From Pseudofrankia sp. DC12 (GTDB lineage: Bacteria > Actinomycetota > Actinomycetes > Frankiales > Frankiaceae), in the NCBI RefSeq assembly GCF_000966285.1, contig NZ_KQ031391.1, positions 186,001 to 250,000 of the forward strand: 64,000 nt of DNA, given 5' to 3'. The notes under the pieces are model-generated. The model saw nothing but the letters and a program-made list of their open reading frames with translations, ran no database searches and was not told where the DNA came from. Position 1 is the first letter of the stretch; each line of letters opens with the position of its first letter. Of this stretch, positions 12,665-60,734 are shown piece by piece. Both the position numbers and the translations under genes were made by a program.

Positions 12665-13042
12665 GTGACCTCACCCGCCACCACGCAGACCGCCGACGCG
12701 GCCGAGACCGCCGGCCGGTGGACGCCGGTGTGCCGCGGCGGCGACCTGCTCGCCGAGCGCGGCGCGGCGGCGCTGATCGGCGAGCGCCAGGTCGCGGTGT
12801 TCCGCACCTTCGACGGGTCGCTCTACGCGGTCGACAACCGCGACCCGTTCACCGGCGTCCACGTCCTGGCCCGCGGCATCGTCGGCAGCCGGGGCGACGC
12901 CCCCACCGTCACCTCGCCGCTGCACAAGCAGGTCTTCGACCTGCGTACCGGCGCCTGCCTCGATGACCCGGCCGTCTCCGTCGCCAGCTACCCCGTCCGC
13001 GACCGGGCCGGGCTGATCGAGATCTGGACCCCGGGCCCGTGA
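12665..13042 (+). CDS. nirD: Nitrite reductase [NAD(P)H] small subunit
   Basis: 125 residues from GTG 12665. Its ribosome site (GGAGGTGATCC) overlaps the nirB stop, indicating translational coupling. It is a Rieske-fold protein (RQVAVFRTFDGSLYAVDNRD, SPLHKQVFDLRTGACLDD) that lacks the Rieske CxH and CxxH ligands, as is normal for NirD. It is the accessory subunit of the assimilatory nitrite reductase. Confidence 0.93.
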   Translation: MTSPATTQTADAAETAGRWTPVCRGGDLLAERGAAALIGERQVAVFRTFDGSLYAVDNRDPFTGVHVLARGIVGSRGDAPTVTSPLHKQVFDLRTGACLDDPAVSVASYPVRDRAGLIEIWTPGP

Positions 13043-21702: not shown

Positions 21703-22701
21703 TCAGGTGGTCGCCGCGGCCTTGGCCAGGACCGGCTTGAGCTGCTCCAGCTGCCATGGGATGTTGAGGATCGTCGGGTTGTTGACCGCGCCCGCGGTGA
21801 ACGCGTCGACCTCCAGCACCCGTCCCGCCCGCACCGCCGGGATGTCGGTGAACAGCTTGTTGGCGTCCATCTCGGTCTTCAGCTCAGGCGCCGCGTAGCC
21901 GACCAGCATGAAGTCGGCGTCGAGCGCCCCGAGCTTCTCCATGCTCAGCTCCCGGTCGACCACGTTGGCGGTCACGCCTGGCGCGAGCTTCATCCCGAGC
22001 TCGGAGTAGAGCTGCACCGACACCGTCTTCGGGTCGTCGATCACCGCCAGGCCGCCGGACTCGTAGTAGAAGGAGTAGCTGAAGGTCTTGCCGGCCAGGC
22101 CGGGCAGGCTCGACCTGGCGTCCTGGATGGTCTTCTCGGTCGCGGCGATCGCCTTCTGCTCATCGGCGGCACGACCGACGGCCTTGCCGATGATGGTGCT
22201 GTTCTCCTGCCAGGTCGCGATGCCGGCGTCATCCGTGTAGCCGACGGTCGGCGCGATCTTCGAAAGCTTGCCGTAGTAGTCCTCGAGGCCGTAGAAGTTC
22301 GTGGCCAGGATCAGGTCCGGGTGCAGCGAGGCGATCTGCTCGAGGTTCAGGTCGCCGCTGGTGTCGAGGGCCGTGCTCTTCGACAGGTCGATCTTTCCGG
22401 ACAGCCAGGGAAAGACGCCGTCGGGCTTGTACGGGTTCCGCGCGTACGCGATCGGCGTGATGCCGAGCGTCGCCAGGGTGTCCTCCTCATAGCTGAGCGC
22501 GATGATCCGCTTCGGCTGGGCCGGGACGACTGTCGTGCCGAACTTGTTCTTCAGGGTGACGGGGAAGCTGCCCGCCGCCGCGCTCGCTGACGCCACCGTC
22601 CCTGCGCCGCCGCTGCCATCGCTGCTGCCGCAGCCGGCGGCCGTGGCCACCGCGGCGACGGCGAGCAGCACCGTCAGGAGGAGTCTCAGTCCGTGTCGCA
22701 C
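21703..22701 (-). CDS. Iron-siderophore ABC transporter substrate-binding lipoprotein (FecB/FepB/FhuD class)
   Basis: 332 residues from GTG 22701. A signal peptide with a lipobox ending AAGC (Cys24) anchors the protein outside the membrane. The mature part has the periplasmic-binding-protein type III fold (PKRIIALSYEEDTLATLGIT, LNLEQIASLHPDLILATNFY). It should bind the ferric siderophore and pass it to FecCD-type permeases such as those at 62418-64000. An IdeR-like box lies about 150 nt upstream, so iron repression is expected. Confidence 0.92.
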   Translation of the reverse strand: MRHGLRLLLTVLLAVAAVATAAGCGSSDGSGGAGTVASASAAAGSFPVTLKNKFGTTVVPAQPKRIIALSYEEDTLATLGITPIAYARNPYKPDGVFPWLSGKIDLSKSTALDTSGDLNLEQIASLHPDLILATNFYGLEDYYGKLSKIAPTVGYTDDAGIATWQENSTIIGKAVGRAADEQKAIAATEKTIQDARSSLPGLAGKTFSYSFYYESGGLAVIDDPKTVSVQLYSELGMKLAPGVTANVVDRELSMEKLGALDADFMLVGYAAPELKTEMDANKLFTDIPAVRAGRVLEVDAFTAGAVNNPTILNIPWQLEQLKPVLAKAAATT

Positions 22702-22917: not shown

Positions 22918-22936
22918 GCGGGCACCGGAGGCCCGC
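22918..22936 (-). terminator. Short GC hairpin at the end of the NRPS operon
   Basis: GCGGGC (22918-22923) pairs with GCCCGC (22931-22936) around a 7-nt loop, starting at the stop codon of the stand-alone A-domain gene. It may end the long biosynthetic transcript; only 6 bp, no T-tract. Confidence 0.3.
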
Positions 22937-24630
22937 TAGCCGCGCACGGACGCGTGGGCGGCTGGCGGCGGCGTCAGGGCTCGGCGGTCGACCTTGCCGC
23001 CAGCGGTGACCGGGAGGGTGTCGAGCACGGTCACGACGCTCGGCACCATGTACTGGGGTAGCTGGGCGGCGCACCAGGCCAGCACCTCGCCGACGACCGG
23101 GTCGCCGGCGACCGCCGCCGCTCCTGGCCCGGAGCCGGCCCGGCCGACGCCGGCGCGGTCCGCGTCGGGGACGACGAAGGCGAGCAGCCGGGGCGCGGCG
23201 GCCTCCTGGGAGAGCACGACCGCCGCCCGGCGCACCCAGGGGTGCGCGGCGAGCGCGGCCTCGACCTCCTCCAGCTCCAGCCGCATCCCTCGGATCTTCA
23301 CCTGGTTGTCGGTGCGCCCCACGAACTCCAGCCAGCCGGCGGCGGCGTTCCAGCGGGCGAGGTCCCCGGTCCGGTACATCCGCGCGCCGCCGCCGGCGAA
23401 CGGGTCGGCGACGAAACGCGCGGCGGTCATCGCCGGGTTGTGCACATAGCCGCGGCCGAGCAGGAAACCGGCCACGTACAGCTCACCGACCGCGCCGCCC
23501 GGCACCGGCTCCAGCCGGTCGTCGAGCAGGTGGAGCTGGGTATGCGGATTGGGCCGGCCGATCGACGCGGCCAGACGCTCCGCGCTGTCCCGGTAGATCA
23601 CGTGGGAAACGCCGATCGTGGTTTCGGCGGGGCCGTACCCGTGGTAGAGCGCGGTACCGAGCTGGGCGCGGAAACGGGCGAAGAGCGCGGGCGTCAGCAC
23701 CTCTCCCCCGCACCAGACGTGGCGCAGCGAACCGAGCGCCGACGTCCCTTCCGCCGCCTCCAGGAGAATGTCCAGCATCGAGGACACGAGATAGACGAAG
23801 GTGACCCGCTCCTGCTCGATCAGATCGACCAGATAGCCCGGGTCGATCTCACCGTCCGGCCCCGCCACGACAACCCGGCCGCCGCAGACCAGCGGCAGCA
23901 GGATCTCGTTGATGGAGATGTCGAACGACAGCGGCGCCTTGAACAGGGACGCGTCATCCGGCCCGAACCCGAACAGGTCCGTGGCCTGCCACCGCAGCCG
24001 CTCGGCGATCGCGTCCTGGCGGATCATCGCCCCTTTCGGGGTCCCGGTCGACCCGGAGGTGAACATGACGTAGGCCAGCCCTGCCGAGGGAATCGGCAGA
24101 TCGAGCGGCTCGCGGGACTGACCGTCCCAGGGCCAGGCGGCCAGGCTGGCCAGGACCGCGGGCAGACCGTCCACCAGCGCGCCGGACGAGGACACCGCGT
24201 CCGGACCGGTCACGACCAGCCGGGCCCGCGCCTCGGCGAGCACCTGGCGGCGGCGCGCCTCGGGCCAGGCCGGCTCGACCGGGACGAACGCGCCGCCGGC
24301 GGCCATCACCGCGAGCACCGCGATGACCATCTCCGCCGACCGCGCGAGCCGGATGCCGACGACGTCCTCCGGGCCGAGGCCCCGCGCGCGCAGCGCCCTG
24401 GCGAGCTGGAACACCCGGGCCCCGAGCTCCCGGTAGGTCAGCCGCCGTTGCGGCGCCACCAGCGCGGGCGCGTCCGGTGAGCGCCGTACCTGGGCGGTGA
24501 ACAGCTCGGCGACGGTCGTGGTGGACGCGGGCACCCTGAAGTCGTTCCAGTCCTCGAGCACCGTGCCCTCGCCGGCCGTCCCGACGGGCGCCAGACCGTC
24601 CTCATAGCGCGAACTCACAACCATTCCCAT
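22936..24630 (-). CDS. Stand-alone NRPS adenylation domain, predicted N5-acyl-N5-hydroxyornithine/graminine-type
   Basis: 564 residues, one A domain without a carrier domain. Core motifs are intact: MFTSGSTGTPKG (A3), FDISINEI (A4), YGPAETTIG (A5), YRTGDLAR (A7), DNQVKIRGMRLELEE (A8) and GGKVDRRAL (A10 Lys). Reading the specificity pocket by eye against GrsA gives D-I-N-Y-W-G-G-I-G-K, the code I recall for N5-formyl/acetyl-N5-hydroxyornithine in coelichelin- and erythrochelin-type synthetases. The N-terminus carries a C-to-A linker motif (LEDWNDFRVP), as if excised from a module. It could load the A-less final module of the giant NRPS in trans. Start ATG 24630 is uncertain; 24624 is also possible. 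Confidence 0.85.
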   Translation of the reverse strand: MGMVVSSRYEDGLAPVGTAGEGTVLEDWNDFRVPASTTTVAELFTAQVRRSPDAPALVAPQRRLTYRELGARVFQLARALRARGLGPEDVVGIRLARSAEMVIAVLAVMAAGGAFVPVEPAWPEARRRQVLAEARARLVVTGPDAVSSSGALVDGLPAVLASLAAWPWDGQSREPLDLPIPSAGLAYVMFTSGSTGTPKGAMIRQDAIAERLRWQATDLFGFGPDDASLFKAPLSFDISINEILLPLVCGGRVVVAGPDGEIDPGYLVDLIEQERVTFVYLVSSMLDILLEAAEGTSALGSLRHVWCGGEVLTPALFARFRAQLGTALYHGYGPAETTIGVSHVIYRDSAERLAASIGRPNPHTQLHLLDDRLEPVPGGAVGELYVAGFLLGRGYVHNPAMTAARFVADPFAGGGARMYRTGDLARWNAAAGWLEFVGRTDNQVKIRGMRLELEEVEAALAAHPWVRRAAVVLSQEAAAPRLLAFVVPDADRAGVGRAGSGPGAAAVAGDPVVGEVLAWCAAQLPQYMVPSVVTVLDTLPVTAGGKVDRRALTPPPAAHASVRG

Positions 24631-24665
24631 CTGTCGGCGATGAAACAGGCGGCGCTCCGCCGGGC

Positions 24666-26189
24666 CTAGAACCTCAGGTACATGTCGTCCGGAATGATCG
24701 GCTGGTGGTACGTACACACCCCAGAAAGCACGGTGGACCCGTGCAGCCGCGATTTCGGGATGAGAATCTTGTCGCCGTCGCTCAGCGAGATCTTGTGCGT
24801 GACGTTGTTCCAGAAATGCATGTCGCCGGACTCGATCATGACCAGCCGGTGCTCGTCGTGGACATGCGTCGTCGACGTCTCGTCGCAGGACTCGACGAAC
24901 GTGTCCAGATCGACCTCGATGCCCTCGGCCGTCAGGTAGGCGTCGATGGCCCGCGCCTTCGCCTTGTGTTCCTCAATCGCGTCCGCCCAGGCCAGCTGCG
25001 CGGCGAGGTCGCGGTCCCACAGCCGGGCGAGCTGGGCCGCGTCGGCGAAGCCCGCGTGGAACGCGGTCAGCGCCGCGTCGCCGGACACCGCGAGCAGCGG
25101 GGCCAGCAGCGCGCCGACCAGCTCGTCGAGCGCGGCCGGGGTGGCCAGCGGCACCGGCTGGGCGAAGAAGGCGGGCCGGTCGCCGAGGCCGTCCTCGACC
25201 GCGTCCGCCCAGGACTCGGCGGTGACCGACTCGTCGACGAGCTGGTGCGTGAACGCGCCGAGCAGCTCGGCGTGGCGCAGCGGCGACCGGGACAGCTGGT
25301 GGCTGTGGTTGCCGCGGGCCAGCGACGTGTTCAGGTACAGCTGCCAGTAGGCGCCGACCGACGCGGTGAGCCCCGCCGCGGCGAGCAGGGCCGCCCAGCT
25401 GGCCGAGCCCGCCACCCAGCGCTGGTAGTGGGCGAGGAGCAGGGCCCGGGCGGCGGGCTGGGCGAGGTCGTACTCGCCGAGCGCGCCGCGCCCGACCGCC
25501 GTGCGCGCCGCCGGCAGGAAGGCCGAGAGCTGCAGCAGCGCGAACGTCGTCGCCTCGCGCCGGTCGAGGGTGCCGCGCAGGACCGCGAACGCGTCTCCCG
25601 GGTGGTCGCGGCGTTCCTCCCAGTACCCGTGCAGGTCGCCCAGCAGCCCACCGAGCCGGCCGCCGGGCGAGGATGGCCGGGCCGAGGCCAGGAAGGAGAA
25701 CAGGTGGCGTTCGAGGACCGGCTGGGCGAGCGCGCCGCGCAGCCGGTTCGCCGGGCCGTAGAAGTCGGCGCCGTCCCGGTCGGCCGCCTCGCTGCGGCTC
25801 GGCGGCAGGTAGAGCAGGTCGGCGTCGTAGATGTTGCGCAGCATCCGGTGCCCGAGCAGGCCGGAGAGCTTCAGCACGTCGGCGGCGGCCAGCTCGGTGG
25901 CGTAGTCCAGCCAGCCCAGGTCGGCGGGCCGGACCGGGCGCCGGTAGGGGTCCGACTCGGTGGTCAGCTCCTCCCACTCGGCGGCCCGGAACGCCGGGTT
26001 GGCCGCGAAGGCACGGACCAGCGCGTGCGCGCCCGCGCCGCGCTGGGCGGCCTCCACCCGGCGGACCAGGTCGTCCCCACCGGCGGTCAGGGTCCGCGCG
26101 TCGTCGGGGCCGGCCGCGGGTGCCGGGTCGAGTGGGTGGTCCGGGCTGGTGAGCTCGGCCAGCGTCGTCGTCGTCTGGTCCGGGGTCAT
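24666..26189 (-). CDS. SznF-like protein: degenerate haem-oxygenase-like domain plus C-terminal cupin
   Basis: 507 residues from ATG 26189 with a strong GGAGGAGG site. By eye it lines up end to end with the streptozotocin N-nitrosating enzyme SznF as I recall it: PYRRPVRP, RNIYDADLLYLPPS, DFYGPANR, AYWQLYLNTSLARGN and a C-terminal cupin. The cupin keeps the three metal histidines His442 and His444 (THVHDEHRL) and His483 (SRLHGS). The central domain, which in SznF holds a diiron N-hydroxylation site, lacks the Glu/His/Asp ligands; for example AQPVPLATP replaces the His/Asp-rich ligand helix. It therefore probably keeps N-nitrosation-type chemistry on a substrate hydroxylated elsewhere. Homologues occur in clusters for graminine (diazeniumdiolate) siderophores. 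Function inferred, not proven. Confidence 0.65.
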   Translation of the reverse strand: MTPDQTTTTLAELTSPDHPLDPAPAAGPDDARTLTAGGDDLVRRVEAAQRGAGAHALVRAFAANPAFRAAEWEELTTESDPYRRPVRPADLGWLDYATELAAADVLKLSGLLGHRMLRNIYDADLLYLPPSRSEAADRDGADFYGPANRLRGALAQPVLERHLFSFLASARPSSPGGRLGGLLGDLHGYWEERRDHPGDAFAVLRGTLDRREATTFALLQLSAFLPAARTAVGRGALGEYDLAQPAARALLLAHYQRWVAGSASWAALLAAAGLTASVGAYWQLYLNTSLARGNHSHQLSRSPLRHAELLGAFTHQLVDESVTAESWADAVEDGLGDRPAFFAQPVPLATPAALDELVGALLAPLLAVSGDAALTAFHAGFADAAQLARLWDRDLAAQLAWADAIEEHKAKARAIDAYLTAEGIEVDLDTFVESCDETSTTHVHDEHRLVMIESGDMHFWNNVTHKISLSDGDKILIPKSRLHGSTVLSGVCTYHQPIIPDDMYLRF

Positions 26190-26249: not shown

Positions 26250-29200
26250 TCAGGCATCGCGACCCGGGCCGTCCGCGTCGGCCCGCACGGCGTCCAGCCG
26301 GCGGGCGAGCCGCTCGACGGTGGTGTGGGCGCACAGGTCGGGCAGCGCGACCCGCCGGCCGAGGCGCGCCTCCAGCTGGGTCTGCACCCGGATCAGCAGC
26401 AGCGAGTGGCCACCGAGCCCGAAGAAGTCGTCGTCGGCCCCGACCCGTTCGACCCCCAGCACCTGGGACCAGACGTCGGCGACGAGCTGTTCCAGGCCGG
26501 CGGCCGGGGCGAGGTGCTCGGCGCCCGAGGGATCCGGTGCCGGGGAGCCGAGCGCGGCGAGCGCGCGCCGGTCGGTCTTGCCGGCCGCCGTGCGCGGCAG
26601 CTCGCCGACCGGGACGAAGACATCGGGGACCAGGTGGCGGGGCAGCCGCTCGGACAGCCAGGCCCGCAGCTGGGCGGCCGTGGGCGGGGCGGCGTCGCCC
26701 TCGGCCAGGTAGTACGCCCGCAGCTCGTCCGTGCCGGCCCGGGCGGTGGCTAGCACGACGACGGCCTGGCGCACGCCGGGGTGGCGGGCCAGCGCGTGCT
26801 CGATCTCCTCCGGCTCCACCCGGAAGCCGCGGATCTTGACCTGGTTGTCGGCCCGGCCCAGGAACTCGATCTCCCCGTCGGGGCGGAACCGGGCCAGGTC
26901 CCCGGTCGCGTACATCCGGCTGCCCGGCACCGGGCTGAACGGGTCGGGCATGAACCGGTCCGCCGTGCGGCGCGGGTCGTTGAGGTAGCCCCGCGCGAGG
27001 GGCAGACCGCTGATGAACAGCTCGCCGACCGCGCCCACCGGCACCGGGTTGTACTCGTCGTCGAGGATCCGGATCTGGGTGTTCGGGTTGGGCCGGCCGA
27101 TCGAGACGCGCGGGGCTGCGCCGCCTGGCTCGAACACCCGGCAGGAGACGCCGATCGTCGCCTCGGCCGGCCCGTAGCCGTGGAACATCCGCGCGTCCCA
27201 CCGGTCCCGGAACCGGCGGTACAGCTCGTCGGGCAGCACCTCGCCGCCGCACCAGACGTACCGCAGCGACAGCCCGGCCACCGCGGCGTCCGGGCGGCCG
27301 AGCATCGCGTCGAGCAGGGACGTCCCGACGTAGCAGAACGTCACGGAGTGCTCGCGGATGATCTCCAGCAGCGCGTCCGGGTCGCTCTCGGCCCGCGGCG
27401 GCGCGACGACGAGGCGCGCCCCGGCCGTCAGCGGCAGGAAGATCTCGTTGACCGAGATGTCGACGCCCAGCGGCGCCTTGTGCAGCAGGACGTCGCCGGC
27501 CGTGAGACCCAGCAGGTCGGCCTGCCAGCGCAGCCGGTTGCAGATCGCCTGATGGCGGATCATCACGCCCTTCGGCGTCCCGGTCGACCCGGAGGTGTAG
27601 ATCACGTACGCGAGGTTCTCCAGGTCGACGCCACCGCTCGGGTCTTCGACCAGGCCCGGGTCCGCGCTCAGATCGGTGGCCGTGGCCTCGACGCCGTCGT
27701 GCACTCCAGCAGGCCGGCCGGCGGGGTCGAGGCGGATCACCGGCACGGTCCCGGTCGACGGAACGCCGGGTGGACCGGCCGTGGGCAGCTCGGGCAGGGC
27801 GACGCCAGCCCCGGTGACCACCGCCGCGATCCCGGCACCGCCGGCGACGGCCACGACGCGCCGGGCCGGCCAGCTGGCTTCCAGCGGCACGAAGGCGCCG
27901 CCGGCCCGCAGGACGCCGAGCAGGGCGACCACGAGCGCGGCGGACCGCGGGACGCAGACCCCGACGGTGACCTCGGGGCCGACCCCCGCGGCGCGCAGCC
28001 GGGCGGCCACCTCTTCGGCCCGTCGTTCGAGCTCGCCGTAGCTGAGCGTGACGGCGGGGCCACCGTCACCGTCGAGGCCGACCACCGCGAGCGCGTCGGG
28101 CGCCCGCTGGGCCTGGTCGGCCACCAGGCCGGTGAGCGAGCGCTCGACGAGCGGGCTCACCGGCCCGCTCGGCCAGTCGTCGACGACGAGCCGGCGCTCC
28201 GCGGCGGACAGGGCGTCGAGCTCGCCGACCACGACGTGCTCATCGGCCTGCTCGCACAACCGGGCGAACCGGCCGACCAGCCGGTCCGCGGCCGCGGCCG
28301 TGAAGACGGTGGCGTCGACGGCCACGGCGACCGTGACGGCGTCCGGGTCGTCCTGCGCGGTCAGGACCAGCGGGAAGCGCGCGGCACCGTTCTCCAGCCC
28401 GAGCTCCTCGACGCTCAGGCCGGGCAGGGCGACGTCGGGCAGCAGCCGCGAGCGGTGGGAGAACGCAACGTCGAAGAGGCCCCCGCCGGTGCCACCGACG
28501 AGGCCCGGGCCCAGCGGGCGGCCGGGCGAGCCCTCGGGCCTGGCACTCGCGGCACACCTGCCCTGGTCGTCGCGCAGCGCCCGGACGACCTCGTCGAACG
28601 GCGCCTCCCGGCGGGCCCTGGCCGCGAAGCTGCGTTCGCGCACCGCCTCGACCAGCGCGCCGAACGTGCGCCTGGCGTCGACCCGGGCCCGCAGCACGAC
28701 CGTGTTGGCGAAGTTCCCGACCACGCCCTCCAGCCCGGTGTGCGGGCGATCGGTGACGGAGGTGCCGACGGCGATGTCCGTCTCGCCGGTGGAGCGGTGC
28801 AGCAGGACCATTCCGGCGGCGAGCAGGACGTCGGCGAGGGAGGTCTGGTGCGCGACGGCGAGGGCGCGCAGCCGCCGGGTGACCTCGGCGGTCAGCGTCA
28901 CCTCGCGGCGCAGTGCCGGACGGTCGGCATCCGCCAGGTCCGGGTGTCGGGCCGGCGCCGGCTCGCGGTCGTCGCGGGCGCCGGCCAGCGCGGCGGCGAG
29001 CAGCGGCGGTGGCGGCGAGAGCGCGTCACGCCACCACGACAGGTGGCGGGTGACCTCGGTCAGCTGCTCGGCCGTGCCCTCGCGCCGGGCATGATCGGCA
29101 TACCGGGCCGACGGCGCTCCCGGCTCGGGCCGGCCGCCCTGGCACCGGGCCCGGTAGCACGCGGCGAGATCGGCGAACAGGATCGCCAAGCTCGGGTCGT

Positions 29201-29708
29201 CGGCGGCGATGTGGGCGAGCACCAGGTACAGGACATGTTCGTCCGGCCCGACCCGCGCCACCAAAGCGCGCAGCGGGATCTGCCCGCCGAGGTCGATCGG
29301 CTCCCGCCCGAAGGCCGCCATCGCCGCCCGCACCGCGGCCGCCGGCCGCGCCGTCAGGTCCTGGAAGGTGACGGTGAACAGCTCGGCGGCCGGGCGGTCG
29401 AGGACGACCTGCGTCGGCCCGCCGGCCGCGTCGGCCGGGTAGACGGTCCGCAGAGTCTCGTGCCGGTCGACGACGTCGCGCAACGCCGCGGTCAGAGCCT
29501 CGAGGTCGAGCGGGCCGGTGAGACGGGCGCCCACCGACAGGTGGTAGGCGCTGCTGTCGGGGGCGAGCCGGTGCAGGAACCACGACCGGCGCTGGGCCGA
29601 CGACAGCGGCGCGGGACCGTGCGCGGCGGCCGCGGGCTCGTGGCCGCCCGGGGCGTCGTCGCGGGGCGGGTGGGACGGCGTGGGTGTGGCAGGCCGGCTC
29701 GCGACCAT
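26250..29708 (-). CDS. NRPS module, C-A-T, predicted N5-acyl-N5-hydroxyornithine/graminine-type
   Basis: 1,152 residues. Start ATG 29708 (MVASRPATP) has GGGA 9 nt upstream; a GTG 24 nt earlier is an alternative. Condensation domain about 40-480 with an altered catalytic motif (AHIAADD: first His lost, second His and Asp kept). Adenylation domain about 520-1020 with a pocket reading D-I-N-Y-W-G-G-I-G-K, identical to that of the stand-alone A domain. Carrier domain about 1070-1140 with FFGLGGHSLLLIR. No thioesterase follows, so chain release is unexplained. It likely adds the last residue of the siderophore. Confidence 0.9.
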   Translation of the reverse strand: MVASRPATPTPSHPPRDDAPGGHEPAAAAHGPAPLSSAQRRSWFLHRLAPDSSAYHLSVGARLTGPLDLEALTAALRDVVDRHETLRTVYPADAAGGPTQVVLDRPAAELFTVTFQDLTARPAAAVRAAMAAFGREPIDLGGQIPLRALVARVGPDEHVLYLVLAHIAADDPSLAILFADLAACYRARCQGGRPEPGAPSARYADHARREGTAEQLTEVTRHLSWWRDALSPPPPLLAAALAGARDDREPAPARHPDLADADRPALRREVTLTAEVTRRLRALAVAHQTSLADVLLAAGMVLLHRSTGETDIAVGTSVTDRPHTGLEGVVGNFANTVVLRARVDARRTFGALVEAVRERSFAARARREAPFDEVVRALRDDQGRCAASARPEGSPGRPLGPGLVGGTGGGLFDVAFSHRSRLLPDVALPGLSVEELGLENGAARFPLVLTAQDDPDAVTVAVAVDATVFTAAAADRLVGRFARLCEQADEHVVVGELDALSAAERRLVVDDWPSGPVSPLVERSLTGLVADQAQRAPDALAVVGLDGDGGPAVTLSYGELERRAEEVAARLRAAGVGPEVTVGVCVPRSAALVVALLGVLRAGGAFVPLEASWPARRVVAVAGGAGIAAVVTGAGVALPELPTAGPPGVPSTGTVPVIRLDPAGRPAGVHDGVEATATDLSADPGLVEDPSGGVDLENLAYVIYTSGSTGTPKGVMIRHQAICNRLRWQADLLGLTAGDVLLHKAPLGVDISVNEIFLPLTAGARLVVAPPRAESDPDALLEIIREHSVTFCYVGTSLLDAMLGRPDAAVAGLSLRYVWCGGEVLPDELYRRFRDRWDARMFHGYGPAEATIGVSCRVFEPGGAAPRVSIGRPNPNTQIRILDDEYNPVPVGAVGELFISGLPLARGYLNDPRRTADRFMPDPFSPVPGSRMYATGDLARFRPDGEIEFLGRADNQVKIRGFRVEPEEIEHALARHPGVRQAVVVLATARAGTDELRAYYLAEGDAAPPTAAQLRAWLSERLPRHLVPDVFVPVGELPRTAAGKTDRRALAALGSPAPDPSGAEHLAPAAGLEQLVADVWSQVLGVERVGADDDFFGLGGHSLLLIRVQTQLEARLGRRVALPDLCAHTTVERLARRLDAVRADADGPGRDA

Positions 29709-29772
29709 CGTCAGTGTTCCCTTCGGTTCCACAGTGGCGGGCGGGCGCCGCTCGACGACGCCCGGGCCGTCG

Positions 29773-30942
29773 TCAGACGGAGACTCGGTCCCGCGCGGCG
29801 ACCGCGCCGGGCCGGCCAGCCCGCGCCCGCGCTCCGGCGCCCGTCGCGGCGGTGCGCCCGGCGGTCGCGGACATGCGGCGCCGCAGGCTGCGCGGCCGCA
29901 GGTCGCCCCAGGCCAGCTCGATGCTGTCCAGGCACTCGCTCCGGGTCCCCGTCACGAACGTGTCGAACCAGCCGAGCGCGTTGCGGCGCTCCTGGGGCCA
30001 CACCGAGTACTGCTGCTCCTGGTTGACGACCACCTTGAACAGGCGGGGCGCCGGCTCGTCGTGGGCCGGCGCGGCGGCCAGCCCGCCGGCAGCCGCCTGC
30101 CCGTGCGCTTCCTTGGTCTCGCCCGAGTGGCCTCCGGCGGCCGGCCCGCCGGCGGCCTCCCACCTCGCCCGGAACGGGCACCCGGCGGCGACCGAGGCGT
30201 CGTCACGCAGGAAGTACTGCTTCCATTCCCGGTTCGCCGGGTCGCCGTACGAGCCCAGCAGCGGGGTCGAGTCCACCTCGTCCATCCGCCGCAGCCGCTC
30301 GCGGATGACCTTCCGGGCCGCCGCGCCCCGCGGGGTGGTCGGTGCCAGCCCCTCGAAGACCCAGCGCGGCTGGAACGTGATGTTGAAGACCGGGTTGCTC
30401 CGGCTGCGCAGCCGGCGGTGGGCCGGCGTGTTGCAGACGACGAAGATCGGGGAGCCGCGGAAGCTGAACTCCCAGGCCGGGTCGTCGGTGTCGGTCGGGA
30501 TGTCCGACGGCCAGGGCTCGCCGTCGCTGTCGTGCAGGTAGCGCAGCAGCGACCAGAACCGCCGCTCGTACCCGAGGACGTCGTCGCTCTCCTGCCCGAC
30601 CGTCCCGTTGCCGGACCCGAAGAACACGACCAGGGAGGTGTTCCGCGAGATCGACTGGTAGGTCGCGAGGTAGCTGGCGAGGATGTCGGGCAGCACCGAC
30701 CAGGTCCGCTCGTCGGACAGGTCGTCGACGAAGCCGAACCGCAGCCCGCCGCTGTTGGCGGCGGCCACCGCGAAGACGCACGGAAACGGCTCGGCCTCGG
30801 ACCGCAGGGTCGCGATCAGGTCGCGGGCGGCGCCGGCGCCCCATTTCGGCATCAGGCCGATGGCGAGGTCCAGCGCCTCCTCGTGGAGGGAACCGGCCGC
30901 GCCGGCGGCACTCACCGCCCGGGCATGCAGAGTGTCTCGCAC
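29773..30942 (-). CDS. YqcI/YcgG-family protein fused to an MbtH-like domain
   Basis: 389 residues from GTG 30942. Residues about 30-260 carry YqcI/YcgG family blocks: EPFPCVFAVAAANSGGLRFG, FVDDL, AWEFSFRGSPIFVVCNTPAH and FNITFQPRWVFEGL. After an Ala/Gly-rich linker, residues about 300-357 form a recognisable MbtH domain (VVVNQEQQYSVWP, LGWFDTF, ECLDSIELAWGDLRPRSLR). As I recall, some YqcI/YcgG relatives are haem-dependent N-hydroxylases of arginine-type guanidines. Here it would supply the N-hydroxylation lost from the SznF-like protein, while the MbtH domain would assist NRPS adenylation. Both roles are inferences. The C-terminal 30 residues are low-complexity. Confidence 0.75.
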   Translation of the reverse strand: MRDTLHARAVSAAGAAGSLHEEALDLAIGLMPKWGAGAARDLIATLRSEAEPFPCVFAVAAANSGGLRFGFVDDLSDERTWSVLPDILASYLATYQSISRNTSLVVFFGSGNGTVGQESDDVLGYERRFWSLLRYLHDSDGEPWPSDIPTDTDDPAWEFSFRGSPIFVVCNTPAHRRLRSRSNPVFNITFQPRWVFEGLAPTTPRGAAARKVIRERLRRMDEVDSTPLLGSYGDPANREWKQYFLRDDASVAAGCPFRARWEAAGGPAAGGHSGETKEAHGQAAAGGLAAAPAHDEPAPRLFKVVVNQEQQYSVWPQERRNALGWFDTFVTGTRSECLDSIELAWGDLRPRSLRRRMSATAGRTAATGAGARARAGRPGAVAARDRVSV

Positions 30943-31000: not shown

Positions 31001-34000
31001 TCAGCCGCGGCCGGCGGCGGCCGCCGGGGTGGGCGGCCCGAGCCGCGCGGCGCGGGCGGCGAGCGCGTCGAGCGCCCGGTGCCACCCGGCCGCGAGACCG
31101 GCGACGACGGGGCCCGCCGGGCCAGCCGGGCCGGAGGTCCACCGCGCGGTCAGCTCGGGGCCGGCCGGGCCGTCGACGACTCGCACGATCACGTTCAGCG
31201 CGAAGGGGTCAGGCTGGTCGGAGTTCCAGTCGGCGAAGAGCTCCTCGTCCTCCTCGGCGACCGTCCAGTCCGCGATCTCGCCGCGGGTCAGCCGGCCGAC
31301 GTAGTTCAGGTAGACCGTCGGCAGGGGCGCCGCGGCGAGGAGCGGCGCGGTGTGGGGATTGAGGAAGCGCAGCATGCTGTAATCCGTTCCGCCCTCTGGG
31401 ATCCGCTCCATCAGCGCGTGCACCCGGGCGACGGCCGCGTCGAGCGACCGGTCGCCCAGGGGGGCGCCGTCCCCGGCCGCGTGCTCCAGCAGGAACGGGA
31501 AGATCTCGGCGAGCCAGCCCACCGTCCGGGACAGGTCCTGGTCGTCGACGACGTGCTCCTGGCGCCCGTGGGCCTGCACCGCGACGACCGTCCCCGACGG
31601 GCCGGGGCCGGCCTGCTCGGCCACGGCCACGGACAGGGCCGCGAGCAGCAGCTCGTCCACCCCCACCCCGAAGGCGGCGGGGACCGTCGAGAGCAGTGCC
31701 GCCGCCCGCGCCGGTGGCAGGCTCACGGTGACCGTCGCAGGCTCCACCGGTTGGGCCGAGCCTGCCCAGGGCGCGGGGGTGGCGCGGCTGAGCAGGTCCA
31801 GCCAGAAGGCCAGCCGCTGGTCCGTGCGCGACGCACGGGCCTGTTCGTCGAGGCCACGGGCCCAGCCGGCGAACGACACCGGCACGGGCGTGAGCTCGGG
31901 CCGTTTGCCGGCCGCCAGGGCGCCCGCCGCCGCCGCGAGGTCCTCCAGCACGATCGGCCAGGACACGCCGTCGATCAGCGCGTGATGGATGATCAGCAGC
32001 AGCCGGCCCGGCCGCGCGGTGCCGGCGTCGAGCCAGACCGCCCGGATGGTCTGGCCGCCGTCGGGATCGAGCTCGGCGTTGGCCGCCGCGGCGAGCCCCT
32101 GGATCAGCGCCCGCCCGCGCGCGCCGCCGAAGCCGTCGCCCGCGGCGAGGTCGGCAACGTCGACCCGGCGGACCCAGGACCGGACGTCGACGCCGCCACG
32201 CGGGGCGATCGCCAGTGACCAGGCCGGTCCGCCGTCGGCGCTGGTCGCCGGGGCTCCGGCCGGGCGCGGGCCGGGGCGGTCCGAGCGGACGAGCCGGCCG
32301 CGCAGCACGTCATGGTGGTCGACGACCGTCGCGACGGCGGCGGTGAGCGTCGCCAGGTCCAGGCCCGCCGGGGTGCACAGCAGCACGGGCGAGGAGAACG
32401 AGGCGAACGTCGCGCCGCCGGGCCCGGTGTCCCGCGCCCGCGCCGCGAGCAGCGCCGGCGTCGGCGGGACCAGGACGATCCCGGCCGGCTCGCGGTCGTC
32501 GGGGCCGGCGGCGGGACGCCGGGTCGCCCCGCCACCGGCGGCCGACGGCGACGGCGCCCGGTGGCGGACCACCGTGGCGAGCGTCGCGGGTGTGCGGTGG
32601 CCGAACAGCAGCCGCGGGGTCACGGTGAGGCCGGCGGCCCGGATCCGGTTGACCAGCCGCATCGCGACGATGCTGTCGCCGCCGAGGGTGAAGAAGTCGT
32701 CGTCGACGCCGACGTCGTCGACGCCGAGCACCGTGGCGAACGCGGCGACCAGGGCGGTCTCGATCTCGTTCGCGGGCGGCCGCGGCGACGCCGGCGCGAC
32801 CACCTCGACGGAGGGCGCCGCCGGTGGCCGCGCGACGAGGTCCACCGGCCGGGCCAGGACCTCCAGCCCGACGTCCGGGATCTTCAGCGCGCTCAGCGGT
32901 GTCGCCGGGTCCGCCGCGACGGCGGCGAGCACGTGGCGCAGCAGCTCGGCGATCCGCTCGGCGGTCGACCGGTCGAACAGGTCGTCGCTGTAGGCGACGC
33001 CGAGCGTCATCCCGCCGTCGGGCCCGGCCCGTTCGACGAAGTCGAAGGACAGGTCGAACTTGGCGCTCGCCCGGCGCACCGGCTCCGGGCGGGCGCTGAC
33101 GGCGTCCAGCGCCAGCTCGTCGACGGTGTCGGAGGCGGCCAGATAGACGATCATGACCTGGAACAGCGGGTGGCGGGCGAGCAGGCGGGGCGGGTTCACG
33201 GCGTCCACCACCCGGTCGAACGGCAGCTCCTGGTGGTCGAACGCGGCGAGGTCGCCGGCGCGGACCCGGCCCAGCAGCTCGCCGAACGACGGGTCGCCCG
33301 ACAGGTCGGTCCGCAGGACCAGGGTGTTGAGGAAGAAGCCGACGAGGTCGTCGAGGGCGGCGTCGGCCCGGCCCGCGACCGGGCTGCCGATCGGGATGTC
33401 CTCGCCCGCGCCGAGCCGGTGCAGCACGGCCGCGACCGCCGACCGCAGCACCATGAACAGGCTGACGTCGTGTGCCCGGGCGGTGCCGCGCAGCGCGCCG
33501 AGGAGGTCGGCGTCGAGAGCCGCCTCGACGATCCCGCCAATGTGGCTCGGCTCGGCCGGCCGGGGCCGGTCGGTCGGCAGTGCCAGCTGGGCGGGCAGGC
33601 CAGCCAGCGCCTCGGCCCAGAACGCCCGGGACCGGGCGGCCGGGCTCGTCGCCAGGGCCTCGTCGCCGAGCAGCTCCTGCTGCCACAGGGTGTAGTCGAC
33701 GTACTGGACCGGCAGCGGCGCCCAGTCCGGCACGAGGCCGGCGGCCCGGGCCCGGTAGGCGGCGGACAGGTCGCGGGCCAGCGGACGGTCGGAGCCCTCG
33801 TCGGCGGCGATGTGGTGGATCAGCACCTGGGCGAGGTGCAGCTTCGGCGAGCAGCGCACGACGGTCACCCGGATCGGTGCCTCGCGCTCCAGGTCGAACG
33901 CGTAGGCCGCGACCCGGGCGAGGACGTCCGCCAGCGCCGGGTCGCCCACGGCCGGCTCGGCGGCCGAGGCGCCGGGCTGGGCCGACCACTCGACGACGTC

Positions 34001-37000
34001 GAACGGGATCTCCGTGTCGGTCGGGTCGAGGACCCACTGGACCGGCTCGCCGCCGGGCGCGGGGAAGATGGTCCGCAGCGCCTCGTGCCTGGCCACGACG
34101 TCGTGCACCGCGGCGCGCAGCGCGGCCAGGTCCAGCGGGCCGGTCAGCCGCCAGGTGATCGGGATGTTGTAGGTCGGGCTCGGGCCCTCCACCTGCCCGA
34201 CCACCCACAGCCGGCGCTGCGCGAACGACAGCGGCGGGTTCACCGGGCGCGGCCGGCGGCTGACAGCCGGGCTCGCGGTACCGGCCTGGTCGAGCCGGCG
34301 GGCGAGCCGGGCGACGGTCGGGTCCTCGAAGACCGCCCGCGGCGTGATCTCCAGCCCGAAGGCCGACCGGACCGCCGCGCACAGCCGCATCACGAGCAGC
34401 GAATGCCCGCCGAGGGCGAAGAAGTCATCGTCGACGCCGACCCGCTCGACCCCGAGCACGGCGGCGAACCGATCGGCGAGCAGCTCCTCGCGGGTGTCGC
34501 GGGGCCGCCGCCCGGCGGCCGTCGCCGGCGCGGACGGCTCGGGCAGCGCCCGGCGGTCCAGCTTGCCGTTGACCGTGCGGGGCAGCCGGTCCAGCGTGAC
34601 GAACGCCTGCGGGACCATGTACGCCGGGAGCACCCGGGCGACCTGCGCCCGGGCCGCCCCAGCCGGGTCCGCCCCGGCCGCCGCGGCCGGCACCAGGTAG
34701 GCCACGAGCTGGACCGCGGGCGGGGCATCCGGACGGAACCAGACCGCCGCCGCCGCGACGCCGGGCACGGCGTCCAGCACCCGCTCGATCTCCCCGAGCT
34801 CGACCCGGAAGCCGCGCACCTTGACCTGGTCGTCCGCGCGCCCAAGGAACACGAGCGAGCCGCCGGGCCGGCGCCGGGCCAGGTCGCCGGTGCGGTACAT
34901 CCGGTCGCCGGGAGCCCCGAACGGGTCGGCGACGAACCGGGCCGCCGTCAGGCCGGCGCGGCGCTGGTAGCCACGGGCGAGGCCCGGCCCGGACAGGTAA
35001 AGCTCACCGGCGACCCCGTCCGGGACCGGCGCGAGCGCCCCGTCGAGCAGGTAGGCCCGGGTGTTGGCGAGGGGCGCGGCCCAGCCTGGGTCGGCGCCCG
35101 TGCTGTGCCAGCCGTAGGCGTCCACGGAGTACTCGGTCGGCCCGTACAGGTCATGGACGACCATCCCGGGCAGCGCGCGCAGCCGTTCCCACAGCGGTGG
35201 CGGCGTCGCCTCGCCGCCGACGAGCAGGACGCCCGGCCGGTGGCCCTCGGGCCGCAGGAACCCGTGGCTCATCAGTTCCTGCAGGTAGGTCGGGGTCAGG
35301 TCGAGCACGTCGACCCGGGTCCGCTCGACGTAGTCGACGAGGGCAGCTGCGTCCCGCGCGACGGCCTCGTCGACGACGTGCGTCTCGTGCCCGGCCAGCA
35401 GCCACAGCAGCGGCTCCCACGAGCCGTCGAAGCTGAACGAGGCCGCGTGCAGCACGCGTTGGGCGCCCCGGTCGGGACCGGCGGCGCGCTCGACCGGCGC
35501 GATGAGGTCGACCAGGTGCGAGGCGAACAGGTTGGCCAGGCCCCGGTGGGTGCCGATGACCGCCTTGGGGACGCCGGTCGACCCGGAGGTGTAGATGACG
35601 CTGGCCGCCGCGTCCGGGTCGGGCGCCGCCGTGGCCCGGTCGCCGGAGGCCTCCAGGTCGAGTTCGTCCAGGACGAGCACGGTGCCCGGCCCGGCCGGCA
35701 GCCGGCCGGCGAGGGCTCGCGTGGTGAGGACGGCCACCGGCGCCGCGTCGGCGCGCAGGAACGCCAGCCGGTCGGCCGGCTGCTCGACGTCGATCGGCAG
35801 GTAGCTCGCGCCGGCCGCCAGCACCCCGAAGATCGTCGGGACCATCCGGGCGCGCGGCAGCGCGAGCGCGACGAGGGCCTGCGGTCCGGCGTCGAGCCGG
35901 CGCACCAGCCCGGCGATCCGGTCGACCTCGGCCGCGAGCTGGGTGAACGTCGTCCGGCCCGCGCCGGTGACCAGCGCGACCCGGTCGGGATGCGCGGCCA
36001 CGGCCCGGTCCAGCTGCTCCGGGACGGTCGCCCCACCGGCGGCGGGCAGCGCCCGGGCCGGCCCGGCGGCGGCGCGCAGGGCGGCCGCGCGCTCGGCGTC
36101 GTCCACGATCTCCAGCCGGCCGATGGGACGGTCCGGGTCCCGGACGATCTCGGCCAGCAGCCGCGACAGCCGGTCGGCCAGCCGGGCGCCGCCGACCGGC
36201 TCGATGACGTCGGTGGCGAACTCGACCAGCACGGTGACCTCGCCCCGCGCGGCCCGGTCGACGAACGTCACGTCGAGGTCGAACTTGGCGGTCCCGACCT
36301 CGGGGTTGATGAAGGCCACCGGCCCGCCGAGCAGCTCCCGGTCGTCGTCGGCCAGGTGGTGGTAGCCCGCCATCACCTGGAACAGCGGGTTGACCCCGAG
36401 GACGCGGCGCGGGTTCACCGCGGCCACGACGTCCTCGAACGGCAGGTCCTGGTGGTCGAACGCGGCCAGATCGGTCTGACGGGTCCGGCCGAGCAGGTCC
36501 CGGAACGTCGGGTCGCCGGCCAGGTCGGACCGGATCACCAGCGTGTTCACGAAGAAGCCGACGAGGCGTTCGAGCGCGGCGTCGGCGCGCCCGGCGACGG
36601 GCACGCCGATCGGGATGTCGACGCCGGACCCCAGCCGGTGCAGCAGGGTGGCCAGCGCCGCGTGGGCGAGCATCGACATGCTCGTGCCGGTCTCGGCGCA
36701 CAGCGCCCGCAGCCCGGTCGCGACCGGGCCGGGCAGCACCCGCACGACCCGCCCGGACGCGCCGTCGCGGACGGCCGGGCGCGGCCGGTCCAGCGGCAGC
36801 GGGATCTCGTCGGGCAGACCGCGCAGCGCCTCCAGCCAGAACGCGCGCTGGCGGGTGGCGAGGCTGCCGCCCGCGTCCTGGCCGGCGAGCAGCGCCTGCT
36901 GCCAGAGGGCGTAGTCGGCGTACTGGACCGGGAGTGGCGCCCAGTCCGGCGCGCGCCCGGCCAGCCGGGCCGAGTAGGCGGTGTCCAGGTCGAGCAGGAA

Positions 37001-49000: not shown

Positions 49001-49969
49001 GTCCCGGTTGACGACGGGCGAGCCGACGGTGACGTCGGTCGCGCCGGTGACCCGGTGGATCAGGGCCGCGTAGGCCGCGAGCAGCACCATGAACGGGGTC
49101 GCGCCGTGCCGGGCGGCGAACGCCCGGACGGTGCCGACCAGCTCGGCCGGCGCGTGATGGACGAGCTGGTCGCCCGCGTCGCGGCGCTGCGCGGCCGCGG
49201 CGGCCGGGAGCCCTTCGGGCTGGCGGTCCTCAGTGGTCGGCCGGGGCAGCCGCACCGCCTCGGCGAGCGGGAGCAGCCGGTCGCGCCAGTAGGCCAGGCC
49301 CGCCGGCTCGGCCGACGGGTCGGCGACCGGAGCCGCCGCGTCGAGGAACGACACCGTGCCGCCGACGTCGCCCCGGCCGTCGTAGGCGGCGAGCAGGTCG
49401 GCGAAGAAGACGTCCCAGGAGGCGTCGTCCCAGGCGATGTGGTGCGCGGCCAGCGCCAGCGTGTGCCGGTCCGGGCCGTGGCGCAGCACGGTGACCCGCA
49501 GCGGCGACTCGGCGGTCAGGTCGAACGGGCGCCGGGCCGCGCGCAGCGCGATCTCCCGAGCCCGGTCGTCTCGCCCGGCTGCCGGCTCGGTCGACAGGTC
49601 GACGCTGAGCCAGGCCGGCGCGACGTCGTCCCGGATGACCTGCTCGAGCCGGCCGTCCGGGGTGGCGCGGTAGGTCGTGCGGAGGATCTCGTGGCGGCGG
49701 GCGACGGCCAGCAGCGCGCGACGCAGCGCCGGCACGTCGAGCGGGCCGGTCAGCTCGAATGCGGCCGAGATCGTGTAGGCCGCGCTGTCCGGGTCGAGCC
49801 GGGTCAGGAACCACATCCGGCGCTGCGCCGGGCTGACGGGGTACCCACGGCCGGGTTCCCGGCGCGGCCGGGAGCCGGCGGGACCCGCCGGCTCGCGCGT
49901 GAGCTGCTCCGCCGCCAGCCGGCGGCGGAGCAGCTCACGCTTGCGCTGCGCGGAGTCGGGACTCGCCAC
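31001..49969 (-). CDS. Giant siderophore NRPS: C-A-T / C-A-T-E / C-A(MT)-T / C-A-T / C-T-E
   Basis: 6,322 residues from GTG 49969 (GGAAGG upstream). Approximate layout: C1 43-490, A1 520-1000, T1 Ser 1053; C2 1136-1570, A2 1583-2093, T2 Ser 2140, E 2210-2656; C3 2700-3136, A3 3156-4076 with an inserted SAM methyltransferase ([13 protein letters not shown]) 3650-3890, T3 Ser 4126; C4 4186-4626, A4 4646-5140, T4 Ser 5188; C5 5243-5700, T5 Ser 5763, E 5836-6303. Pocket readings by eye: A1 DPVQLGVVWK (no match known to me), A2 DFWNIGMVHK (Thr), A3 DMENMGLINK (one change from the N5-hydroxyornithine code), A4 DGEDLGLVDK (basic-type, unassigned). The last module has no A domain, and C3 has QVLLWDG in place of HHxxxDG. 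No thioesterase. Modules 2-3 (D-allo-Thr, hydroxyornithine) recall coelichelin synthetase. Confidence 0.95.
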
Positions 49970-56776: not shown

Positions 56777-57045
56777 CGCGACGCGCCGGCGTCGGGGCTG
56801 GCCTGGGTGGCCAGGGGGCCCGTCGGCTGACGATCGGCCGTCATCCGGGCGACCAGGCTGGCCGGCCGCAGGTCGGTCCAGTTCGCCTCGACGTACTCCA
56901 GGCAGTCCGGCCGGCTCGCCGCTCCGTACACGGTCGTCCAGCCGGCCGGCACCGGCGCGAACGTCGGCCACAGGGAGTGCTGGCCCTCGGCGTTGACCAG
57001 GACGTAGAAGCTGCCCATTTCGTCATCGAACGGGTTGGTCGACAT
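56773..57045 (-). CDS. MbtH-family protein
   Basis: 90 residues from ATG 57045 with AAGGAGA 10 nt upstream. Canonical MbtH signature: [53 protein letters not shown]. Such proteins bind and activate NRPS adenylation domains. First gene of the biosynthetic operon and directly downstream of an iron box. The C-terminal 20 residues are low-complexity. Confidence 0.95.
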
Positions 57046-60630: not shown

Positions 60631-60734
60631 GCCCGCGCCGTCCGATGACCCACGCACCCGTCGGGGCCCGCGCAGGCGCAGCCCGCGGCCCGCATGCTCG
60701 GCGACAGCGGGCGGCCACTGCCTGCCCGAAGAAG

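What the first reader, a model, noticed from the sequence alone, without database searches (positions are those of the whole stretch)
24666..26189. SznF-like protein that kept the cupin but lost the diiron site
The cupin histidines (442, 444, 483) align with the SznF triad, yet the central haem-oxygenase-like domain lacks the Glu/His/Asp ligands and has AQPVPLATP where SznF has its His/Asp-rich ligand helix. This suggests division of labour: another enzyme does the N-hydroxylation and this one does only the N-N bond-forming step. It would be a natural single-function relative of SznF.
Basis: partly seen in the sequence, partly recalled or inferred. Interest (0 to 1): 0.78.

Follow-up and report, generated by a model that had tools for sequence, protein, structure and literature searches.

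The report
SznF relative with retired iron domain
This Frankia gene encodes a probable nitrogen-nitrogen bond-forming enzyme whose oxygenase half has lost its iron site, with a separate haem-type enzyme next door that very probably took over that job; the arrangement is already published for relatives in other bacteria, so this is a new member of a known group rather than a new kind of enzyme.

Summary
The central domain has none of SznF's seven diiron ligands, while the cupin histidines (442, 444, 483) are kept. This is the rule in the subfamily: 23 of 23 actinobacterial rows keep the cupin triad, none keeps more than 2 of 7 diiron ligands. I found no complete substitute set. The division of labour is supported too: the operon encodes a YqcI/YcgG protein fused to MbtH, a relative of the haem enzyme ChmN that makes dihydroxyarginine. 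But this is published for ChmM/ChmN, and the likely product is the diazeniumdiolate graminine, not a nitrosourea. Added here: the five SznF-type loci examined have a Rieske neighbour, GrbD-type loci the YqcI gene instead; the degenerate domain is the least conserved part; linked adenylation domains carry a code also found in a coelichelin-like synthetase, whose recalled substrate is an isostere of graminine, so graminine is probably made free and then loaded; a stand-alone adenylation domain co-occurs with an adenylation-less C-T-E module. Salicylate and ornithine-hydroxylation genes share the locus. New member of a known kind.

The parts
24666..26189 (-). GrbD/ChmM-type SznF homologue (507 aa): N-terminal domain, pseudo-HDO domain, C-terminal 3-His cupin
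24981..25664 (-). degenerate haem-oxygenase-like domain (residues 176-403), 0 of 7 SznF diiron ligands
   Evidence: model pLDDT 58-94, mostly 76-94, here
24669..24917 (-). cupin domain (residues 425-507) with H442, H444, H483
   Evidence: weak Cupin_2 match, 18.2 bits, under the 27.2 cut-off
29773..30942 (-). GrbE/ChmN-like YqcI/YcgG protein (predicted haem enzyme) fused to MbtH
   Evidence: PF08892 E 1.5e-70 and PF03621 E 1.5e-14; Cys55 in 29 of 29 rows
26250..29732 (-). NRPS C-A-T, A-domain code DINYWGGIG; no thioesterase match; C motif AHIAADDPS
22936..24717 (-). stand-alone adenylation domain, code DINYWGGIG (start codon uncertain; the ORF as listed overlaps the 3' end of the GrbD gene)
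31001..49969 (-). NRPS of 6322 aa: C-A-T, C-A-T-E, C-A(MT)-T, C-A-T, C-T-E
31004..34234 (-). terminal C-T-E module without its own A domain
   Evidence: same layout in 7 related genomes
50085..51758 (-). aryl-AMP ligase, salicylate/DHB type (code PLPAQGVLN)
51755..56971 (-). salicylate synthase-T-Cy-A-T NRPS
   Evidence: TIGR03494 418.7 bits, cut-off 325.15
57180..60657 (-). two ABC exporter-type half transporters (57180-58868, 58861-60657)
61048..62403 (+). L-ornithine/L-lysine N-monooxygenase
   Evidence: PF13434 E 4.6e-106; the only strong one in the genome
62418..63473 (+). FecCD siderophore permease
   Evidence: PF01032 E 3.9e-86
21703..22701 (-). ferric-siderophore binding protein
   Evidence: PF01497 E 2.3e-21

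Best explanation
The protein is the GrbD/ChmM-type partner of a two-enzyme graminine pathway in a siderophore cluster. Step 1 (shown for ChmN in the literature, inferred here): the YqcI/YcgG haem enzyme, fused to MbtH, hydroxylates L-arginine on Ndelta and Nomega. Step 2 (inferred): the 3-His cupin of the window protein binds that dihydroxyguanidine, joins Ndelta to Nomega and expels the guanidine carbon and one nitrogen, giving free L-graminine (N5-hydroxy-N5-nitroso-ornithine). The central HDO domain keeps its fold but not its metal site and serves as scaffold or interface. Step 3 (inferred): DINYWGGIG adenylation domains, which read graminine as the isostere of N5-formyl-N5-hydroxyornithine, load it; the stand-alone one supplies the adenylation-less C-T-E module in trans, and its epimerase gives D-graminine, as in gramibactin.
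For: Ligand loss with cupin kept; SznF fold. YqcI gene beside GrbD in 17 of 21 genome loci; in 3 of the other 4 the contig ends first. Partner swap: Rieske motif beside 5 of 5 SznF-type loci and in 0 of 19 GrbD-type loci scanned; YqcI beside Tistrella MobE, a known graminine producer, and not within the held flanks of the two SznF-type loci tested. HDO is the least conserved domain: window against 10 non-Frankia relatives 60.9 / 47.7 / 82.5% (N-terminal / HDO / cupin), against 30.0 / 42.2 / 45.8% among 5 SznF-type proteins. GrbD-specific cupin residues R448, E453, W460, N462, H495, Q496 are in 23 of 23 rows and in MobE, not shared as a set by SznF types. DINYWGGIG-type A domains within the held flanks of GrbD in 13 of 21 loci; the same code in a coelichelin-like NRPS with an ornithine hydroxylase and in another NRPS with hydroxylase and formyltransferase; no formyltransferase in this window. 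Stand-alone A domain present in 8 of 8 genomes with an A-less C-T-E. Literature: grbD and grbE are both needed for graminine and fed L-graminine rescues the mutants (PMC6771848); graminine derives from arginine (PMC9679993); passages read.
Against: Nothing biochemical was done here; ChmM showed no activity on the hydroxyarginines tried (PMC10849742), which favours a missing factor or a carrier-bound substrate. Published graminine A domains in proteobacteria use DVHRTGLVAK, not DINYWGGIG (PMC10391617). In the A-domain tree the stand-alone domains are sister to the coelichelin-like domain (SH-aLRT 99) and only the C-A-T ones group with other GrbDE-linked modules (80-89), while a third GrbD-linked domain (Pseudonocardia eucalypti) sits with the domain of the formyltransferase-linked NRPS (83), so the stand-alone one might load something other than graminine. 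In the coelichelin-like locus itself my seeds found no formyltransferase within the 28 kb held, and its substrate is recalled only. One genome with GrbD pieces (G576 = L019/L021, 1310 contigs) shows no YqcI at all. Tistrella MobE may keep 2 or more HDO ligands, depending on the alignment.
Confidence: 0.78

Rival explanations
1. The cupin acts on a carrier-bound substrate: an A domain loads dihydroxyarginine, and the N-N bond is formed on the thioester (offered as an option in PMC10849742, section 12).
For: ChmM was inactive on the free compounds tried (PMC10849742); the N-oxygenase is fused to MbtH, a partner of A domains, and in G434 an A domain and GrbD share one open frame of 1135 aa.
Against: The A-domain code is the one found in a coelichelin-like synthetase, whose recalled substrate formyl-hydroxyornithine resembles graminine (N-CHO against N-N=O) far better than dihydroxyarginine; fed L-graminine rescues grbD and grbE mutants of P. 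graminis (PMC6771848).
Confidence: 0.12
2. This is the frankobactin-type cluster, and its product holds no graminine: the stand-alone A domain loads formyl-hydroxyornithine or another residue, and GrbD/GrbE serve some other end or are decaying.
For: From recall only, frankobactins have a 2-hydroxyphenyl-oxazoline and five further residues, which fits the layout here. Stand-alone A domains are sister to a coelichelin-like domain. A PurN-like fourth formyltransferase exists elsewhere in the genome.
Against: GrbD and YqcI open frames keep their key residues across Frankiaceae, so they look selected; no formyltransferase in the window; the held stretches of G399, G400 and G396 keep GrbD and YqcI with the stand-alone A as the only whole DINYWGGIG domain (other contigs were not searched for the C-A-T type).
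Confidence: 0.15
3. The central domain is not retired but has a re-worked metal site and still oxidises something.
For: H295, H297, E308, H315 and D319 are conserved in 21-22 of 23 rows.
Against: The segment that bears three ligands in SznF is of variable length and unconserved; E189, H225, E281, H311 are kept in 0 of 23; H315 and D319 flank the E281 position on the same helix, so by helix geometry they should face away from it (inference); of the set only H297, and an acidic E at 319, is in MobE. No coordinates were available for distances.
Confidence: 0.05

Closest known systems
ChmM (chalkophomycin, Streptomyces) with ChmN
   Same: SznF homologue without HDO iron ligands but with the cupin triad, in an NRPS cluster with a YqcI/YcgG haem arginine N-oxygenase (PMC10849742). 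ChmO's A domain is likewise predicted as hydroxyformyl-ornithine (PMC11085572).
   Different: Here the YqcI/YcgG protein is fused to MbtH, the assembly line is a salicylate/Cy-domain NRPS without a PKS in the part seen, and one A domain is stand-alone. I did not have the ChmM sequence.
GrbD with GrbE (gramibactin, Paraburkholderia); MobE (tistrellabactin)
   Same: Two-gene graminine cassette in a siderophore NRPS cluster (PMC6771848, PMC10391617); MobE is nearer to the actinobacterial GrbD rows than to SznF types in all three domains.
   Different: Published graminine A-domain code DVHRTGLVAK against DINYWGGIG here; HDO state of MobE is ambiguous.
SznF (streptozotocin)
   Same: Same three-domain fold (Z 28.6) and cupin triad.
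   Different: SznF keeps seven HDO ligands and its relatives examined have a Rieske neighbour; it makes a nitrosourea without losing atoms (PMC10849742).
Coelichelin-type synthetase (candidate, G107 locus L122)
   Same: A-domain code DINYWGGIG and an ornithine N-monooxygenase.
   Different: No GrbD or YqcI match in L122; no formyltransferase found in the stretch held; its substrate, formyl-hydroxyornithine, is recalled, not tested.

Membership tests
GrbD/ChmM-type graminine enzymes | SznF homology over the full length | tested here: met
   phmmer E 1.5e-41; hhalign prob 100 over 441 columns; fold
GrbD/ChmM-type graminine enzymes | 3-His cupin kept | tested here: met
   H442 H444 H483; 23 of 23 rows
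GrbD/ChmM-type graminine enzymes | partner YqcI/YcgG (GrbE/ChmN) gene in the same cluster with an NRPS | tested here: met
GrbD/ChmM-type graminine enzymes | A domain with the published graminine code DVHRTGLVAK | tested here: not met
   None of the 8 A domains read in the window has it; ChmO is also reported to differ (PMC10849742), so this code does not define the ChmM branch
GrbD/ChmM-type graminine enzymes | makes graminine | not testable with these tools
   needs enzyme assay or product structure
SznF (bifunctional N-nitrosourea synthase) | diiron ligand set in the HDO domain | tested here: not met
   0 of 7
SznF (bifunctional N-nitrosourea synthase) | accompanying Rieske gene, as in the SznF-type loci examined (my observation, not a published definition) | tested here: not met
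   motif in 5 of 5 SznF-type loci, none in the window
YqcI/YcgG haem guanidine N-oxygenases (partner protein 29773-30942) | Pfam YqcI_YcgG and a cysteine haem ligand | tested here: met
   Cys55 in 29 of 29 rows. Equivalence to ChmN Cys47 is inferred, not aligned
YqcI/YcgG haem guanidine N-oxygenases (partner protein 29773-30942) | haem binding and arginine N-oxygenation | not testable with these tools
   needs the purified protein
NRP metallophore clusters (antiSMASH rule: C + A domains with GrbD and GrbE, or salicylate synthase, or ornithine monooxygenase) | marker genes present | tested here: met
   antiSMASH's own profiles were not run. Rule seen in PMC12971057 (passages)

The most novel reading that the evidence does not exclude
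Frankiaceae make an uncharacterised three-ligand siderophore (salicyl-oxazoline or thiazoline, hydroxyornithine hydroxamate, and D-graminine) in which graminine is made free by a haem N-oxygenase plus a cupin with a retired diiron domain, and is loaded in trans onto an A-less C-T-E module by an adenylation domain recruited from formyl-hydroxyornithine loading, because N-nitroso is an isostere of N-formyl. It would make NO-donating siderophores a trait of actinorhizal symbionts and their relatives, and would predict that ChmM-type enzymes act on free, not carrier-bound, substrate.
Probability: 0.42. Interest if true: 0.58.

Novelty: new member of a known kind. Interest (0 to 1): 0.4.

Why it matters
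How graminine-type diazeniumdiolates are made is half solved: the hydroxylating haem enzyme is known, but the N-N bond-forming step had not been reconstituted in the papers seen. The Frankia proteins give an independent, well-conserved set to try, a list of GrbD-specific cupin residues that may decide between diazeniumdiolate and nitrosourea, and an adenylation-domain argument that the substrate is free. If the product is real, plant-nodule actinobacteria and their relatives carry a photolabile, NO-releasing metal chelator. The central idea of the finding itself is already published.

Tried and rejected
One search was run on the wrong strand by my error; only its placement of the window (G000:C1:186001-250000, 6,884,336 bases) was used. 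A draw over the phylum with the window protein found only the own genome (1 of 396), too thin to be useful; the genus (6 of 8) and the class draw with SznF (56 of 393 at E <= 1e-8) were better. Of those 56, 11 match over both domains in one piece, 4 in two pieces (G519, G559, G400, G396) and G576 is cut by its contig end; the other 40 match only parts that end before the cupin and were not used.

I first thought that F. torreyi had lost the stand-alone A domain, which would have given a reciprocal-loss argument that both A-domain clades load the same residue; one search found it about 43 kb from GrbD on the same contig, so that argument was dropped. I also first assumed that both DINYWGGIG domains must load graminine; the tree puts them in two clades, so this is left open. 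MobE ligand states differed between nine alignments and are reported as inconclusive. One search was run at E <= 1e-120, too strict to list the own genome's C-A-T domain, so it says nothing about that type elsewhere.

Rows dropped before counts: L019 and L021 (fragments) from the 23-row table; L027-L030 repeat the L004 and L006 genomes; L073-L079 and L081-L084 repeat genomes already held (contig lengths), and these with L080 were left out of the tree, as were A domains under 330 residues. The 29 YqcI rows stand for 21 distinct genomes. Absence of other families in the fold lists is not used.

In the library I found no paper on a graminine or diazeniumdiolate product of Frankia; the code string DINYWGGIGK is in 0 papers. 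The frankobactin paper (Mohr 2021) is not held: only citations and remarks on it were seen, so whether this is that cluster is untested. No supplementary files could be read, and published tables of A-domain codes and homologue lists are in such files.

Full report
What was checked. Its only convincing solved relative is SznF, matched nearly end to end (E 1.5e-41; hhalign probability 100 over 441 columns). The AlphaFold model from 20 sequences (pTM 0.73, mean pLDDT 68.2) has the SznF fold: all 12 Foldseek hits at E <= 0.001 are SznF chains, VIA Z 28.6 over 426 residues, followed by diiron HDO enzymes such as HrmI (21.9) and RohS (21.3). The cupin part of the model is weak (pLDDT 28-61).

The ligands. 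SznF ligand positions were taken from PMC11705231 (passage: E215, H225, E281, H311, D315, H318) and from recall (E189 and cupin H407, H409, H448); the letters fit the 6m9r sequence. In the window protein the seven read A, H, G, L, V, T, A and the cupin triad is H442, H444, H483. In 23 near-complete actinobacterial rows (22 distinct genomes) the triad is kept in 23 of 23; E189, H225, E281 and H311 are kept in 0 of 23, and no row keeps more than 2 of 7. The E215 position is D in 16 and E in 4 of 23, H in the window protein. Four of 4 plasmid SznF-type proteins (Methylobacterium, Azospirillum, Gloeothece, Pantoea) keep all ten. The AQPVPLATP stretch (343-351) lies where SznF has EHIHIDQHH, and that stretch varies in length among the relatives.

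No replacement diiron set. Within residues 176-403 the acidic or His positions conserved in at least 22 of 23 rows are E239, E308, H315, D383, D394 and D403, of which D394 and D403 also exist in SznF as non-ligands. H295, H297, D319, D241 and D392 reach 21 of 23. That gives no diiron set on the ligand-bearing helices of SznF, but H295, E308, H315 and D319 are specific to this branch and unexplained.

The partner. The gene at 29773-30942(-) is YqcI/YcgG (E 1.5e-70) fused to MbtH (E 1.5e-14), the only YqcI/YcgG match in the genome. PMC6771848 (passages) shows that grbD and grbE are both needed for graminine and mentions MbtH fusions of GrbE; PMC9679993 (passages) shows graminine comes from arginine.

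Neighbourhood statistics. Of 21 genome loci that encode a relative, 17 hold YqcI close to GrbD; L003, L009 and L021 end first; L019 does not, and its genome (G576, 1310 contigs) has no YqcI match at all, which may be a gap or a loss. Three other genomes with short GrbD contigs (G602, G660, G536) do have YqcI on other contigs. A Rieske motif lies next to 5 of 5 SznF-type loci (four plasmids and G612) and in 0 of 19 GrbD-type loci scanned, window and Tistrella included, within the held flanks. YqcI is found next to Tistrella MobE but not in the held stretches around the Methylobacterium or G612 SznF-type genes (the other three SznF-type loci were held with too little flank to test); G612 does carry one about 387 kb away. 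So the Rieske neighbour and the YqcI neighbour exchange places, as expected if one hydroxylase replaced the other.

Evolution of the dead domain. Mean identity of the window protein to 10 non-Frankia relatives is 60.9% (N-terminal), 47.7% (HDO) and 82.5% (cupin); among 5 SznF-type proteins, a more divergent set, it is 30.0, 42.2 and 45.8%. The HDO domain has thus become the least conserved part in the GrbD group, while it is not in the SznF group. Rows were found by similarity to the whole protein, so loss of the domain in other members would not show. Cupin residues R448, E453, W460, N462, H495 and Q496 are in 23 of 23 rows and in MobE, and not shared as a set by the SznF types: candidates for the difference in outcome.

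The assembly line. Going with transcription: salicylate synthase-T-Cy-A-T (TIGR03494 over its cut-off), aryl-AMP ligase, a 6322-residue NRPS with C-A-T, C-A-T-E, C-A(MT)-T, C-A-T and C-T-E, then YqcI-MbtH, C-A-T, GrbD and a stand-alone A domain. Codes: DLFNLGLIH, DPVQLGVVW, DFWNIGMVH (threonine type, recalled), DMWNMGLIN (one letter from the third module of the coelichelin-like synthetase), DGWDLGLVD, and DINYWGGIG for both the C-A-T and the stand-alone domain. A domains with DINYWGGIG (once DVNYWGGIG) are visible in the held flanks of GrbD in 13 of 21 loci; the other 8 show none within the held DNA. The published graminine code is DVHRTGLVAK (PMC10391617, passage), so the actinobacterial branch differs; ChmO is reported to be predicted as hydroxyformyl-ornithine (PMC11085572, passage) and to have a distinct code (PMC10849742). 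The same DINYWGGIG code occurs in a coelichelin-like NRPS with an ornithine monooxygenase (L122; no formyltransferase found in the stretch held) and in an NRPS with formyltransferase and monooxygenase (L123, L126). That DINYWGGIG is the formyl-hydroxyornithine code is recalled; the second context agrees with it. Graminine is N5-hydroxy-N5-nitroso-ornithine, so it differs only by N-N=O for N-CHO: an inference that would explain the shared code and favours loading of finished graminine. No formyltransferase lies in the window; the genome's four are PurN, a PurN-like protein just under the cut-off (146.7 against 150.1 bits), PurU and Fmt.

Loading in trans. Eight genomes show the A-less terminal C-T-E (own genome, G397, G399, G400, G396, G628, G620, G519; in G399 the E domain is in another frame than C-T). 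All 8 have an orthologue of the stand-alone A domain (75-88% identity in the 7 others; in four of them the aligned stretch runs over a TGA, which by the frames lies at an edge of the open frame). The one genome with an integrated C-A[DINYWGGIG]-T-E module, G434, has no such orthologue at E <= 1e-120. The C-A-T between the YqcI gene and GrbD is whole in the own genome, G628, G620 and G559, A only in G397, G401, G519 and G434, and a remnant in G399, G400 and G396. In G434 the A domain and GrbD share one open frame with an internal ATG. In the A-domain tree all DINYWGGIG domains form one clade (100); the stand-alone ones are sister to the coelichelin-like domain (99), the C-A-T ones group with GrbDE-linked modules of Amycolatopsis and Streptomyces relatives (80-89), and the Pseudonocardia eucalypti and G434 integrated ones sit with the formyltransferase-linked domain (83) (quick method). 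The groups may therefore differ in substrate; this is the weakest link of the loading model.

Organism and setting. The genome length equals that given for Frankia sp. DC12 (6.88434 Mb), and G397 equals EuI1c (8.815781 Mb), in PMC6624747 (passage), so the strain is inferred, not named by a tool; PMC4541282 (search listing) describes DC12 as an isolate from Datisca nodules that cannot reinfect plants. An ornithine monooxygenase lies at 61048-62403 and at a like distance in G397 (cut by the end of the stretch); none was found in the stretches held for G399 and G434. Together with salicylate synthase and GrbD/GrbE this gives three chelator pathways in one locus; PMC12971057 (passages) reports that its 42 three-chelator regions all had pyoverdine-chromophore genes, so the combination looks unrecorded there, but antiSMASH was not run here.

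Verdict. Observation confirmed; interpretation supported but already published for the relatives; new member of a known kind, with some new detail on loading and on the partner swap.

Noticed in passing
L067 5426-8830 (-) (G434:C1): A DINYWGGIG adenylation domain and GrbD share one open reading frame of 1135 residues (internal ATG between them): fusion or tight coupling.
   Followed up: partly
window 24666-26189, residues 295, 308, 315, 319: H295, E308, H315 and D319 are conserved in the degenerate HDO domain of actinobacterial GrbD proteins but not in SznF types or MobE; role unknown.
   Followed up: partly
window 26250-29732: The C-A-T module between the YqcI gene and GrbD has a C-domain motif AHIAADDPS (first His lost) and in related genomes is reduced to A only or to a remnant: a module that seems to be decaying.
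   Followed up: partly
window 5577-9812 (-): Molybdopterin oxidoreductase fused to flavodoxin, FAD and NAD domains (1411 aa), a one-chain nitrate-reductase-like enzyme.
   Followed up: no
window 13039-14247 (+): Uroporphyrinogen-III synthase domain fused to a DNA-binding response-regulator domain.
   Followed up: no
window 759-2141 (-): NYN domain with an OST-HTH/LOTUS domain.
   Followed up: no
G576 (L019, L021): A Frankia draft genome with GrbD pieces at two contig ends but no YqcI/YcgG match anywhere: assembly gap or loss.
   Followed up: partly
L011 16254-17474 and L018 16099-17319: Salicylate synthase relatives (49-50% identity) close to GrbD/YqcI also in Actinacidiphila and a Streptomyces (weaker ones, 31-33%, in L012 and L017), so the salicylate-graminine pairing is not confined to Frankia.
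   Followed up: no
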